From the NCBI GenBank assembly GCA_036323355.1, contig AP028876.1, positions 1,922,001 to 1,986,000 on the forward strand: 64,000 nt of DNA, in the 5' to 3' direction. This stretch comes from Gottschalkiaceae bacterium SANA. GTDB taxonomy: Bacteria > Bacillota > Clostridia > Tissierellales > GPF-1. The position numbers and the translations under genes are program-made. A model generated the notes under the pieces. It searched no databases. It was not told where the DNA came from and saw only the letters and a program-made list of their open reading frames with translations. Within the stretch, counting starts at the first letter, position 1. Each line of letters opens with the position of its first letter. Of this stretch, positions 40,814 to 44,268 are shown in pieces.

Positions 40814-42046
40814 CTATCGATATAATGGATACTTGGAGCAAAGCGAGTCAACCAATTTCTTTGCCTGCTCAGGATCCGCATTTTCTTTCAATGTCAATTC
40901 AAATATTTCAGCAATAACATCCATATCCGCTTCTGTAAACCCTCGAGTTGTAATCGCCGGTGTACCCAATCGAAGTCCGCTAGTCACAAATGGACTTTCT
41001 GGATCAAATGGAATGGTATTCTTGTTGGCAGTTATTCCGATTTCATCCAAAAGATGCTCGGCTACCTTTCCAGTCATATTCCGGTTTCGAACATCAACCA
41101 AGACCAAGTGATTATCCGTTCCCCCTGAAACAAGAGTAAATCCACGCTTTAACAAAGCTTGACTTAGAGCAGATGCATTGTCAATGATCTTTTGCTGATA
41201 CACTTTGAACTCTGGTGTCAAAGCTTCCTTGAAGCTGACCGCTTTTGCCGCAATCACATGCATCAAAGGACCGCCCTGGGTGCCTGGGAACATGGCTTTA
41301 TCAATCTTCTTCGCGTATTCTTGCTTGCAAAGAATGGCTCCGCCTCTTGGGCCGCGTAAAGTCTTATGGGTAGTTGTTGTAACAAAATCAGCATAGGCTA
41401 CCGGGTTTTGATGCAAGCCCGCTGCAACAAGTCCAGCAATATGCGCCATGTCAACCATCAAGTAAGCGCCAACAGCATCGGCAATCTCTTTAAATTTATC
41501 AAAATAAATTTCTCGTGGATAGGCACTCGCCCCAGCAACGATCAGTTTCGGCTTCACTTCTTTTGCCAACTCCATCACTGCGTCATAATCAATAACTTGC
41601 GTTTCTTTATCCACGCCGTAACTTACAAAATTAAAATATGTGCCGGAAATATTAACGGGACTGCCATGGGTCAAATGTCCACCATGGGACAAGTTCATGC
41701 CAAGAACCGTATCGCCAGGCTTTAAAATAGCAAAATAAACACCTAGATTTGCATTAGCTCCACAATGAGGTTGCACGTTGGCATGGTCTGCGCCAAATAA
41801 TTCCTTCATGCGATCTCGCGCGAGGTCTTCTACAACATCAACAAACTCACAGCCGCCATAGTATCGTTTCCCAGGATAGCCTTCAGCGTATTTGTTTGTC
41901 AAATAGCTTCCCATTGCCTCCATCACCGACTCAGAGACAAAATTCTCTGATGCGATCAATTCAATTTTATCGGATTGACGATTTTTTTCTAATTGTATCG
42001 CCTCATACACCTCTGGATCAGTTTTCATTACTTGTTCAAAATTCAT
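40814..42046 (-). CDS. glyA: Serine hydroxymethyltransferase
   Basis: A 410-residue PLP enzyme that interconverts serine and glycine with tetrahydrofolate, supplying one-carbon units. The PLP lysine is in [14 protein letters not shown]. Other motifs are [29 protein letters not shown] and [12 protein letters not shown]. The start ATG at 42046 follows GGGAGGTC; a longer frame with six extra codons lies over the SD. It is a single-gene unit with its own extended -10 promoter and a terminator. Confidence 0.98.
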
Positions 42047-42075
42047 GCGCGACCTCCCTCTCAAAATATACCGTT

Positions 42076-42107: not shown

Positions 42108-42398
42108 TTATTTCGAATATTTCACAACCAATTCCAACAAGTCTTTCAATAACTCTTCTTGATCCTCTTGATTGCCTGCTTTTAGCTGGCCCATCAGACA
42201 ATCTTCAATATATTCTTCCATAATCAATCCGCCAACTTTGTGAAGCGCCGCCTTAGCGGCTGAAATTTGAACCAAAATATCCTGGCAAACCTTCTCTTCG
42301 TCCACCATCTTTTGAATCCCTTTTACCTGGCCTTCAATTCGCCTCAATCGAAGAATTAAACTCGCCTTGTCTTTTCGGCTACAAGATTTTGTCGTCAT
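42108..42398 (-). CDS. CsoR/CstR-family transcriptional repressor with a His-to-Tyr ligand change
   Basis: A 96-residue all-helical DUF156 repressor, started at the ATG at 42398 behind GGGAGGAG. The DNA-binding patch LILRLRRIEGQVKGIQKM is intact. In copper-sensing CsoR proteins the ligands are Cys, His and Cys; here the aligned positions are Cys38, Tyr63 (in MEEYIEDC) and Cys67, so the His is lost. A C-x-C fingerprint without His is more like persulfide-sensing CstR proteins, although an unknown inducer is equally possible. An extra Cys6 is present. It overlaps the RseC-like gene by 20 bp, so the two are coupled. Confidence 0.88.
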   Translation of the reverse strand: MTTKSCSRKDKASLILRLRRIEGQVKGIQKMVDEEKVCQDILVQISAAKAALHKVGGLIMEEYIEDCLMGQLKAGNQEDQEELLKDLLELVVKYSK

Positions 42399-42813
42399 AT
42401 TGATCTCCTCCCAAAACACGTCCCATGGCCAATTTCTTTTTTTGTCGGCTAAAGACCTTTCGGTCCAAAATCCATAAAAAAACAAATGTCGCACTCATAA
42501 ACAAAAGCCCAAGGCCAAATGCTTTTACCTCGGATCCAAACCAAGTCGATCCCAAGAAAATTCCCGCAATCATACCGGCAGCAGGGATTCCATAAACAAT
42601 CAAACTCGATAGCAAAATAAATCGCGTATCAGAAACAATTTCTACATAATCCCCTTGACTTGCATCAAGTTCATTACTCAATTCAACCACAATAGAAGGA
42701 GCATCACATGATCCCCCACAAGATTTGCAATTCCCGCCACATGCGGAGATCCGTCTGACTTGAACCATTGCCAGATTTTCTTTCTTTTCAATGACATATC
42801 CTATTTGATCCAT
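42379..42813 (-). CDS. RseC/SoxR-reducing-system-like cysteine-rich membrane protein
   Basis: A 144-residue protein of the RseC/MucC family. An N-terminal cytoplasmic part holds four cysteines (Cys25, 29, 32 and 36; ACGGNCKSCGGSC), which resembles a metal- or cluster-binding site. Two transmembrane helices follow (about 65-85 and 90-112). In proteobacteria RseC belongs to the SoxR-reducing system with Rsx/Rnf; clostridial members often sit near rnf genes. Here it stands alone with a CsoR-family repressor. The start ATG at 42813 is favoured over a frame reaching into the promoter. Confidence 0.82.
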   Translation of the reverse strand: MDQIGYVIEKKENLAMVQVRRISACGGNCKSCGGSCDAPSIVVELSNELDASQGDYVEIVSDTRFILLSSLIVYGIPAAGMIAGIFLGSTWFGSEVKAFGLGLLFMSATFVFLWILDRKVFSRQKKKLAMGRVLGGDQYDDKIL

Positions 42814-42855
42814 ATTCTCATCCCTTCGGTACCCCTGTACGGTATTATATTCATT

Positions 42856-42883
42856 ATCATACCACAATTTATATCTTTTTCAA
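42856..42883 (-). promoter_or_regulatory. Promoter of the rseC-like/csoR-like unit with a possible operator
   Basis: The minus strand shows TTGAAA, a 16-bp spacer and TATGAT. Just downstream, at 42829-42840, is GTAC-N4-GTAC containing the half-site GGGGTA, which resembles half of the G-rich CsoR/CstR operators. This would allow autoregulation, but only one clear half-site is present. Confidence 0.6.
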
Positions 42884-42933: not shown

Positions 42934-42956
42934 AAAAAGACGACCTTAGTCGTCTT
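42934..42956 (-). terminator. Terminator after rarA
   Basis: An 8-bp stem (AAGACGAC with GTCGTCTT) is followed on the minus strand by a short T-run. The rarA stop codon TAA lies in the loop. It ends the ftsZ-nrdR-rarA transcript. Confidence 0.85.
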
Positions 42957-44268
42957 CTCGCAAACTATTCAGATACATTTTCATCTTCTTCTCATAGCCC
43001 TGATCCGTAGGGGTATAAAACTCACTCTCATCCAAAGCCTTCGGTAAATAGTTTTGATCCACATAATGATTGGAATAAGCGTGAGGATACAGATATTTCA
43101 GTCCTTCATCCCCTTGATGGCGCGCCTTCATGCCACGAGCTGTTGCATCTTTTAGATGTTCAGGAACCGTCGCAATTTTCTCGGTTTTCACCTTTTCAAG
43201 AGCACGATTGATCCCCACATAAGAGGCATTACTCTTTGGGGCCGAAGCCAAATAGGTCGTCGCTTGTGCCAATAAGATTCTTCCCTCAGGCATACCGATC
43301 CGTTCAACACCTTGCGCAACCGCAACCGCCAATTGTATAGCTTGGGGATCCGCATTGCCAACATCTTCCGCTGCACTGATCATCAGACGCCTACATATAA
43401 ATTTCGGATCTTCTCCGGCTTCGATCATCAAAGCTAGCCAATATAGGGCTGCATTCGGATCTGAGCCACGAATACTTTTGATAAATGCAGAAATTACATC
43501 GTAATGAAAGTCTCCATTTTTTTCATAACGAATGGGTTTTTTCCTAGACGCGTCAGCAAGCAAAGAAAGAGAAATATTCATTTTTCCTTCTTTCGATTCT
43601 GCAAGCATGACACCCATTTCTAAAAGATTTAAAGCAACCCGCGCATCACCATTAGCGACTTGAACCATATAGTCCATGGCCTCGTCCTCAAGATACACTG
43701 GCAACTTACCAAATCCATTTTCTTGATCACAAATCGCACGCTGTACGATTTTTTCAATGGACTCATCATCCAATGGTGCGCATTCTAATACAATGGATCG
43801 TGAAATCAAGGCTTTATTTACTTCATAGTAGGGATTTTCCGTCGTTGCCCCAATCAAAATTACGGTTCCATTTTCTACGTAGGGAAGAAGAGCATCTTGC
43901 TGCGATTTGTTAAACCGATGAATTTCATCGATAAACAAAATCGTGCCAATCCCTTCAAACCGTTGAGAGGCCTTTGCTTTCTCAACTACTTCACGAATAT
44001 CTTTCACCCCTGAAGTCACGGCATTCAATCGAAAGAACGCTTTTTTTGTTTCTTTGGCCAGAATTCTTGCCAGGGTTGTCTTCCCTGTTCCCGGAGGTCC
44101 AAATAAAAGTAAAGAAAGCAATTGATCATGATCAATCGCTTTCTTTAATACTGAGTTATCACCAACCAAACGTTCCTGCCCCTGAAAATCAAGCAATCGA
44201 TTCGGGCGCATTCGCTCCGCTAAAGGTTGATAAACTTTTTTTTGTTCAGCAAATCCAAATAAATCCAT
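42946..44268 (-). CDS. rarA: Replication-associated recombination protein RarA (MgsA)
   Basis: A 440-residue AAA+ ATPase related to clamp loaders, acting at stalled replication forks. Walker A is GPPGTGKTTLA near residues 54-64, Walker B is LFIDEIHRF, sensor 1 is IGATTENPYYEV, and SRSIVLECAPL follows. The C-terminal MgsA domain (KSIRGSDPNAALYWLALMIEAG) is intact. It follows nrdR by 7 bp. Confidence 0.96.
   Translation of the reverse strand: MDLFGFAEQKKVYQPLAERMRPNRLLDFQGQERLVGDNSVLKKAIDHDQLLSLLLFGPPGTGKTTLARILAKETKKAFFRLNAVTSGVKDIREVVEKAKASQRFEGIGTILFIDEIHRFNKSQQDALLPYVENGTVILIGATTENPYYEVNKALISRSIVLECAPLDDESIEKIVQRAICDQENGFGKLPVYLEDEAMDYMVQVANGDARVALNLLEMGVMLAESKEGKMNISLSLLADASRKKPIRYEKNGDFHYDVISAFIKSIRGSDPNAALYWLALMIEAGEDPKFICRRLMISAAEDVGNADPQAIQLAVAVAQGVERIGMPEGRILLAQATTYLASAPKSNASYVGINRALEKVKTEKIATVPEHLKDATARGMKARHQGDEGLKYLYPHAYSNHYVDQNYLPKALDESEFYTPTDQGYEKKMKMYLNSLREDD

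What the first reader, a model, noticed from the sequence alone, without database searches (positions are those of the whole stretch)
42108..42883. Two-gene redox/metal unit: RseC-like Cys-rich membrane protein and a CsoR-family repressor lacking the copper His
The repressor keeps both ligand cysteines (Cys38, Cys67) but has Tyr63 where copper-sensing CsoR proteins have His. Loss of this His is also seen in CstR-type persulfide sensors. Its partner carries four clustered cysteines (25, 29, 32, 36) and two membrane helices of the RseC type, normally linked to Rnf/Rsx electron transfer. The genes overlap by 20 bp and share one promoter. A regulator of sulfur or redox state that controls an RseC-like protein is my inference; I know no described pair of this kind.
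Basis: partly seen in the sequence, partly recalled or inferred. Interest (0 to 1): 0.55.

Follow-up and report, generated by a model that had tools for sequence, protein, structure and literature searches.

The report
Repressor tied to membrane redox protein
A small gene switch from the copper-sensor family, with one copper-binding residue swapped, sits with a cysteine-rich membrane protein in many anaerobic bacteria and most likely senses sulfur or thiol stress rather than copper.

Summary
Both genes are real: RseC-family (42379-42813, -) and CsoR/DUF156 repressor (42108-42398, -), 20 bp overlap, Cys38/Tyr63/Cys67 as stated. The pair is conserved: 3 of 3 genomes of the genus, 28 of 140 RseC loci examined in the class, 35 of 80 named CsoR loci. 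It is part of an old housekeeping block, hemZ-hisS-aspS-[csoR-rseC-trxA]-glyA-rarA, in which csoR, rseC and trxA come and go.

Tyr63 is not fixed: 30 of 58 RseC-linked repressors have Tyr, 28 His; 47 of 47 copper-gene-linked ones have His. A CsoR-type operator (TACC-N-GGTA) lies at 42829-42844. Such sites precede 14 of 17 Tyr-type csoR-rseC operons against 3 of 323 control genes, and 0 of 50 rseC genes in the block without csoR. In relatives further sites precede glutaredoxin, ferredoxin, CcdA/DsbD and CoA-disulfide-reductase-like genes; three such genomes hold no other CsoR. I conclude: an autoregulated thiol/persulfide-type (CstR-like) repressor, not a copper sensor; effector unproven. Side find: two related species encode the first RseC motif cysteine as TGA, likely selenocysteine.

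The parts
42108..42398 (-). CsoR/DUF156-family repressor, 96 aa, Cys6-Cys38-Tyr63-Cys67 (W-X-Y-Z), Val37 at position A, Asp at position B
   Evidence: PF02583 87.1 bits; alignment positions; fold as 4m1p
42379..42813 (-). RseC/MucC-family membrane protein, 144 aa, C-x3-C-x2-C-x3-C motif (25, 29, 32, 36), two TM helices
   Evidence: PF04246 84.1 bits; three Cys invariant in 36 sequences; model
42829..42844 (-). CsoR-type operator TACCGTACAGGGGTAC, between the -10 box and rseC
   Evidence: only perfect match in the 3.49-Mb genome; 10 hits in all at up to 2 mismatches against 27 for the control pattern, so the other 9 mean nothing; family-wide enrichment. In the two other genomes of the genus the GGGGTACCG half is kept and the first half reads TACG, so they miss the strict pattern
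42856..42883 (-). sigma-70-type promoter TTGAAA-16-TATGAT
   Evidence: 10 of 12 consensus matches (4 found in region, 2.5 expected)
42937..42956 (.). hairpin at the 3' end of rarA followed by T-run, possible rarA terminator
   Evidence: inverted repeat I3; not called by the terminator scan (0 found)
40814..42046 (-). glyA (serine hydroxymethyltransferase), 61 bp after csoR, perhaps in the same transcript; part of the conserved block
   Evidence: PF00464; synteny; no terminator found between (which starts at 42050)
42946..44268 (-). rarA (MgsA-type AAA ATPase), upstream flank; part of the conserved block
   Evidence: PF12002; synteny

Best explanation
The repressor binds the TACC-N-GGTA operator between the -10 box and rseC and so represses its own transcript (rseC-csoR, perhaps glyA). 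Oxidation or persulfidation of Cys38 and Cys67' across the dimer (di- or trisulfide bridge, as in CstR) releases it, raising RseC. RseC, a membrane protein with a redox-active Cys motif, then supports Rnf-type electron transfer or keeps it reduced. In relatives the same kind of repressor controls thioredoxin, glutaredoxin, ferredoxin, CcdA/DsbD and a CoA-disulfide-reductase-like enzyme. Shown by sequence: genes, operator, conserved pairing, sites at these genes. Inferred: binding, the effector, the thiol chemistry and what RseC does.
For: A TACC-N(3-8)-GGTA site lies from -80 to +20 of csoR in 14 of 17 Tyr-type csoR-first rseC operons (17 of 17 with one mismatch) vs 3 of 323 (28 of 323) control genes of the same loci; 0 of 50 before rseC in the block without csoR and 0 of 23 before rseC in csoR-rseC operons; the window site is the only perfect match in its genome. 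Copper network broken: 0 of 55 Tyr-type repressors have copA or copZ found within 700 bp, and the full A-X-Y-Z-B fingerprint is kept by 44 of 47 copper-linked but 20 of 58 RseC-linked sequences. The window genome has a separate His-type csoR with copA and copZ. In ten genomes with a paired Tyr-type repressor an operator pattern gave 21 hits vs 5 for the control pattern; 8 are own promoters; of the other 13, three precede ferredoxin, two glutaredoxin, two CoA-disulfide-reductase-like genes, one a polyferredoxin, one a DUF1858-like gene. In G086, G222 and G021, each with a single CsoR of Tyr type linked to trxA, sites precede glutaredoxin (2) and CcdA/DsbD-type genes (2). E. faecalis CstR likewise controls a CoA persulfide reductase (PMC9405070, passages). 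TGA at the first motif Cys of RseC in two species argues for a redox-active residue.
Against: No binding or effector data. The looser regulon search was not enriched overall: 42 hits vs 38 for the control; of 30 loci looked at, 19 are not at such genes. Nine of the ten genomes hold 2-3 CsoR, so paralogues could use those sites; the tenth, G036, has one CsoR and its only hit lies inside an ORF (L390). 28 of 58 RseC-linked repressors keep His and 20 of 58 the full copper fingerprint. His-type csoR-first rseC operons have the site in 2 of 23; rseC-first operons in 0 of 18, the window's own being missed there because of its longer ORF start, and in 1 of 5, the window. In the window genome no second operator was found, so the wider regulon is carried over from relatives. 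The CoA-disulfide-reductase and DUF1858 matches are below the models' curated cut-offs. One csoR-rseC pair lies in a copper operon (L239).
Confidence: 0.5

Rival explanations
1. A Cu(I) sensor that uses Cys38-Cys67 without His and turns on RseC (and thioredoxin in others) to protect or rebuild Fe-S electron transfer under copper stress.
For: Sequence and fold nearest to copper CsoR (4m1p: 65.1 bits against 44.5 for 7mq1, the S. pneumoniae CstR chain). L239: copA-csoR-rseC-copZ. 20 of 58 RseC-linked and 9 of 17 trxA-linked repressors keep the full Cu fingerprint.
Against: The window protein lacks the Y-position His and the A-position Tyr; the genome has another CsoR, with His, beside copA and copZ; none of 55 Tyr-type repressors has copA or copZ found within 700 bp; regulon sites in relatives are at thiol and Fe-S genes. 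Recalled, not from a call: His61 mutants of M. tuberculosis CsoR still bind Cu(I) but lose allostery.
Confidence: 0.2
2. The two genes are neighbours only by inherited synteny; the repressor regulates itself and other targets, and RseC is a passenger.
For: csoR and rseC each occur in the block without the other (52 of 140 RseC loci without csoR; 17 trxA-linked and 19 other block csoR without rseC among 166). In the rseC-csoR order outside the window's genus no strict operator was found before rseC (0 of 4).
Against: In the window the only operator lies directly before rseC, with csoR second and overlapping by 20 bp, an arrangement kept in the 2 other genomes of the genus; pairing occurs in both gene orders and outside the block (L239).
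Confidence: 0.2
3. Another effector of the family: Ni/Co/Zn (Cys6 supplies a W ligand) or formaldehyde (glyA neighbour).
For: Cys at W in 3 of 3 genomes of the genus; family members with these effectors exist (PMC5016687, passages).
Against: No His at Y; no metal exporter or formaldehyde dehydrogenase seen among the ORFs of 36-50 kb (read by eye); the FrmR N-terminal Pro2 is absent (sequence: Met-Thr-Thr).
Confidence: 0.1

Closest known systems
CsoR (copper-sensing DUF156 repressor; G. thermodenitrificans 4m1p, B. subtilis, M. tuberculosis)
   Same: Family, fold, two ligand cysteines, G-rich TACC/GGTA-type operator, likely autoregulation
   Different: Tyr63 for His, Val37 for the A-position Tyr, no copper genes beside it
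CstR / YrkD (persulfide-sensing DUF156 repressors)
   Same: Two cysteines without the His ligand; in relatives, sites at thiol-reducing genes including a CoA-disulfide-reductase-like gene with a rhodanese domain (CstR of E. faecalis controls CoAPR, PMC9405070, passages; YrkD, PMC9918477, passages)
   Different: Sequence nearer CsoR; no rhodanese, sulfite exporter or sulfide:quinone reductase seen beside it (by eye); Tyr at the Y position
TTHA1953 of Thermus thermophilus (CsoR-family, thiol-modulated, sulfur oxidation)
   Same: Cysteine redox controls DNA binding; sulfur genes (PMC10318464, passages)
   Different: Operator TACNNTACNNNNGTANNGTA without G-run; distant targets, Sox system
RseC of E. 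coli and C. ljungdahlii
   Same: Family, two TM helices, three conserved cysteines; link to Rsx/Rnf (PMC11729352, abstract and one section; PMC9124969, passages)
   Different: A CsoR-type regulator was not seen in what I read: 'csor' has 0 hits in PMC9124969; of PMC11729352 only abstract and one section were read. Motif here C-x3-C-x2-C-x3-C, found in 2 of 28 paired loci
RexT (ArsR/SmtB family, controls thioredoxin)
   Same: A metal-sensor scaffold turned redox regulator of a thioredoxin gene (PMC8960804, search listing only)
   Different: Different protein family

Membership tests
DUF156 / CsoR-RcnR superfamily | PF02583 match over cut-off and three-helix fold | tested here: met
   87.1 vs 22.8 bits; best PDB match 4m1p
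DUF156 / CsoR-RcnR superfamily | G-rich pseudo-palindromic operator in its own promoter | tested here: met
   TACCGTACAGGGGTAC at 42829-42844; binding not shown
Copper-sensing CsoR | Cys-His-Cys (X-Y-Z) with Tyr/Glu second shell (A, B) | tested here: not met
   Cys38-Tyr63-Cys67, Val37, Asp at B
Copper-sensing CsoR | copA/copZ in the same locus | tested here: not met
   Neighbours rarA, rseC, glyA; copA and copZ lie with the paralogue in L001
CstR persulfide sensor | X and Z cysteines without Y-position His | tested here: met
CstR persulfide sensor | cst-type neighbours (rhodanese, TauE, SQR) | tested here: not met
   None recognised among the ORFs of 36-50 kb (read by eye, not all searched)
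CstR persulfide sensor | Closer in sequence to CstR than to CsoR | tested here: not met
   44.5 bits to 7mq1 (S. pneumoniae CstR) against 65.1 to 4m1p; S. aureus and E. faecalis CstR were not compared
CstR persulfide sensor | Di/trisulfide formation with persulfides | not testable with these tools
   Needs purified protein and mass spectrometry
RseC/MucC | PF04246 match, two TM helices, three conserved cysteines | tested here: met
   84.1 bits, model, Cys25/29/32 invariant in 36 sequences
RseC/MucC | Fe-S cluster or Rnf dependence | not testable with these tools
   Only co-occurrence with rnfA-type genes was tested: 160 of 170

The most novel reading that the evidence does not exclude
A recurring His-to-Tyr branch of CsoR is a new class of thiol/persulfide sensor in Clostridia. 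It commands a reductive regulon (thioredoxin, glutaredoxin, CcdA/DsbD, ferredoxin, CoA-disulfide reductase) of which RseC is a member, and RseC itself is a thiol-redox (in some species seleno-) protein linking the thiol pool to Rnf, not merely a regulator of Rnf genes.
Probability: 0.35. Interest if true: 0.75.

Novelty: new variant of a known kind. Interest (0 to 1): 0.58.

Why it matters
What RseC does for Rnf is open: C. ljungdahlii needs it to grow on gas, and how rseC itself is controlled is left to future work there (PMC9124969, passages). A conserved neighbouring repressor with a mapped operator gives a direct handle on the signal that calls for RseC. The Tyr-for-His branch also offers natural variants for asking what makes one DUF156 scaffold read copper and another read sulfur.

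Tried and rejected
Copper sensing as the main reading: kept as a rival because of L239 and the His-type members. Tyr63 as a mark of the pair: rejected, His in 28 of 58. Pair as a self-standing unit: rejected. The independent-pairs test of A-Tyr against Y-His gave only 2 supported pairs and no result. A second operator in the own genome: none beyond control level; a longer combined pattern found only the window site, with 3 mismatches, and nothing in the two relatives. The looser regulon pattern was not enriched overall. RseC fold search: no match with E below 0.001. A bacterial SECIS for the TGA-bearing RseC genes: no significant z-score, no Rfam match, though a CUUC-loop-GAAG hairpin about 20 nt downstream is present in both sequences. 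Paper searches: RseC with CsoR (2 papers, listing only, neither on the pair); CsoR family with tyrosine and Clostridia (none); CsoR with thioredoxin and Clostridia (38 papers, 20 listed; two opened, PMC3519856 and PMC6311696, passages: a copAZ-csoR operon and an author name); CsoR with difficile and copper (21 papers, 12 listed; one opened, PMC12574912, passages). None of these showed the pair; most hits were seen as listings only and the library lacks most subscription journals, so this is no proof that it is unpublished.

Selection to keep in mind: the 166 repressors are not a random sample. They come from 28 RseC-paired loci, 80 named loci picked by likeness to the paired set, 60 class hits chosen by me from the score list (28 from its top part not already held, 32 from lower down) and six loci of the own genus; identical sequences were dropped (174 to 166). 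Context labels rest on BLAST with one query per gene. RseC loci: one search listed 150 places; 140 were examined, 10 not fetched, unlisted ones not seen. In one search, 50 of the 52 block loci without csoR could be read.

Full report
WHAT IS THERE. On the minus strand between rarA and glyA lie two overlapping genes, rseC (ATG 42813, 144 aa) and a DUF156 repressor (ATG 42398, 96 aa). In the published fingerprint of the family (W-X-Y-Z and A-B; PMC4235346, passages) the window protein reads W Cys6, X Cys38, Y Tyr63, Z Cys67, A Val37, B Asp. The same genome has a second CsoR with Cys-His-Cys beside copA and copZ, so copper sensing has its own candidate there, and only one RseC match.

THE PAIR IS CONSERVED. 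The 3 genomes held of the genus keep rarA-rseC-csoR-glyA with Cys6 and Tyr63 and the 20-bp overlap. In 341 genomes of the class RseC is found in 170 and CsoR in 205. Of 140 RseC loci examined 28 have a CsoR within 500 bp on the same strand, 23 with csoR first and 5 with rseC first. Of 80 named loci found by likeness to paired repressors, 35 are paired, in Tissierella, Romboutsia, Tepidibacter, Clostridioides, Lutispora and others; two of the 35 (L210, L211) are the two other genomes of the own genus.

IT BELONGS TO A LARGER BLOCK. Neighbours repeat across these genomes: hemZ, hisS, aspS, a ThiF-family gene, csoR, rseC, trxA, glyA, rarA (thioredoxin and ThiF checked, glyA and rarA, the others named by eye). 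Of 140 RseC loci 28 have csoR, 52 have at least one block gene within 4.5 kb and no csoR (46 of them two or more), 9 lie at rnf genes and 51 elsewhere. Where rseC is missing, csoR is often followed directly by trxA or glyA; 11 of the 13 unpaired Tyr-type loci lie in this block. RseC and rnfA-type genes co-occur: 160 genomes with both, 10 RseC only, 88 rnfA only, 83 neither (the genomes are not independent).

TYR OR HIS. Among 166 distinct repressors, His is found in 47 of 47 next to copper genes (one of them also next to rseC); Tyr in 30 of 58 next to rseC, 4 of 17 next to trxA, 18 of 19 in the block with neither, and 3 of 25 elsewhere (sample not random). The full copper fingerprint is kept by 44 of 47 copper-linked and 30 of 94 block-linked sequences. 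Eighty-four rows (42 rseC, 18 block, 13 trxA, 11 other, no copper) form one group (SH-aLRT 93, 'quick' tree), but 16 RseC-linked rows, the window's three among them, fall outside it. The tree needs at least 11 His/Tyr changes, many forks unsupported. So Tyr seems to have arisen often, outside the copper-linked set.

THE OPERATOR. Before rseC lies TTGAAA-16-TATGAT and then TACCGTACAGGGGTAC at 42829-42844, the only perfect match in the genome. In Tyr-type csoR-first rseC operons a TACC-N(3-8)-GGTA site lies between -80 and +20 of csoR in 14 of 17 (17 of 17 with one mismatch), in trxA-linked ones in 9 of 17, in copper-linked ones in 10 of 46, and at control genes of the same loci in 3 of 323 (28 of 323 with one mismatch). 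Before rseC it is absent in 50 of 50 block loci without csoR (1 of 50 with one mismatch), in 9 of 9 rnf loci (2 with one mismatch), in 50 of 50 other loci (10 with one mismatch), and in 23 of 23 csoR-rseC operons. Against the reading: His-type csoR-first rseC operons have it in only 2 of 23 (5 with one mismatch); operons with rseC first in 0 of 18, where the window's site was missed because of its longer ORF start, and in 1 of 5 (the window). Related sequences count more than once in all these figures. The Tyr-type repressors with csoR first are thus very likely working, self-regulating DNA binders, and the window's has the same kind of site.

WHAT ELSE CARRIES THE SITE. In ten genomes with a paired Tyr-type repressor a stricter pattern gave 21 hits against 5 for its control. 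Eight are the csoR-rseC promoters. Of the other 13, three precede ferredoxin genes (L392, L409, L410; in L410 a glutaredoxin-like gene follows), two glutaredoxin (L399, L405 at 155 bp), two CoA-disulfide-reductase-like genes (L404 at 27 bp with a rhodanese domain, L403 at 188 bp; best model TIGR03385, both below its cut-off and both cut by the locus end), one a polyferredoxin (L394), one a short DUF1858-like frame (L401, below the cut-off), one is unclear (L407) and three lie inside or beside unrelated ORFs (L406, L408, L390). A looser pattern in 14 more genomes was not enriched overall (42 against 38), and 19 of 30 loci looked at are inside ORFs or at genes that I did not class as redox (read by eye, not all searched); but four are csoR promoters, six precede glutaredoxin (L413, L435), ferredoxin (L423; L431, a ferredoxin-like fragment with glutaredoxin behind it) or CcdA/DsbD-type genes (L427, L420), and one copA (L428). 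Twelve hits of that call had no locus. Three of these genomes, G086, G222 and G021, hold a single CsoR, Tyr-type and trxA-linked. Of their 12 hits four are at glutaredoxin (2) or CcdA/DsbD (2), two are the own csoR promoters, four are inside ORFs or without a near gene, two were not examined. Those four can hardly belong to a copper paralogue. Two genomes of the same family whose single CsoR is not in the block (G199, G292) had 5 hits, none at such genes, one at copA.

READING. CstR, the persulfide sensor of this family, has the two cysteines (bridged Cys-S(n)-Cys when modified) and in E. faecalis controls a CoA persulfide reductase (PMC9405070, passages); TTHA1953 is another thiol-modulated member (PMC10318464, passages). 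The window repressor works, most likely, like CstR, but by sequence and neighbours it is not filed as one. RseC's motif binds an oxygen-sensitive Fe-S cluster in the E. coli fragment (PMC11729352, abstract and one section) and rseC is needed for autotrophy in C. ljungdahlii, with lower rnf expression in its absence (PMC9124969, passages).

A SIDE FIND THAT BEARS ON IT. In two species of one genus (G122, G169) the RseC frame has a single in-frame TGA exactly at the first motif cysteine, where three sister species have TGT; no other locus among L064-L289 showed this. TGA ends another gene in one of the two loci (L120). This looks like selenocysteine and would mark that residue as redox-active. 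No SECIS could be proved, the Sec machinery could not be searched, and no selenoprotein model matched. Neither locus has csoR and neither genome is among the 205 with CsoR.

VERDICT. Observation confirmed; interpretation right in direction, wrong in scope. New variant of a known kind.

Noticed in passing
L120:4965-5426 (-), L135:4971-5423 (-): RseC genes with in-frame TGA at the first motif cysteine (SA-U-A-x-CGKC), in 2 of 5 sister species examined: a likely selenocysteine RseC; no NCBIfam selenoprotein model matched.
   Followed up: partly
L401:1288-1456 (-), approximately: DUF1858-like (hybrid-cluster-protein-associated redox disulfide) frame 17 bp from an operator site reads ...SIKCFG-TGA-GG... 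and goes on in frame to the next stop: perhaps another selenocysteine at a disulfide motif.
   Followed up: no
L239:2024-5571 (+): Candidatus Frackibacter sp. WG13: copA - csoR (Cys-His-Cys) - rseC - copZ, an RseC gene inside a copper operon.
   Followed up: partly
L399, L405, L410, L413, L431, L435: CsoR-type operator upstream of glutaredoxin genes in six genomes (in L410 and L431 behind a ferredoxin-like frame; L410's glutaredoxin named by eye, the other five by Pfam).
   Followed up: partly
RseC loci: RseC comes in motif subtypes: C-x2-C-x2-C (26 of 28 csoR-paired) and C-x3-C-x2-C-x2/3-C (the window and L081 among the paired; 46 of 50 copies outside block and rnf). The window pairs a Tyr-type repressor with the subtype that is rare among pairs.
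   Followed up: partly
G000:C1:1354176 and others: The window's genome has 4 matches to the rnfA model (which also catches rnfE), hence perhaps two Rnf-like sets; the one listed place lies about 610 kb from rseC.
   Followed up: no
L261, L267, L283, L288: Desulfitobacterium, Desulfosporosinus, Gracilibacter and Moorella loci have csoR (Cys-His-Cys) directly followed by trxA, without rseC, in the same hisS-aspS neighbourhood.
   Followed up: no
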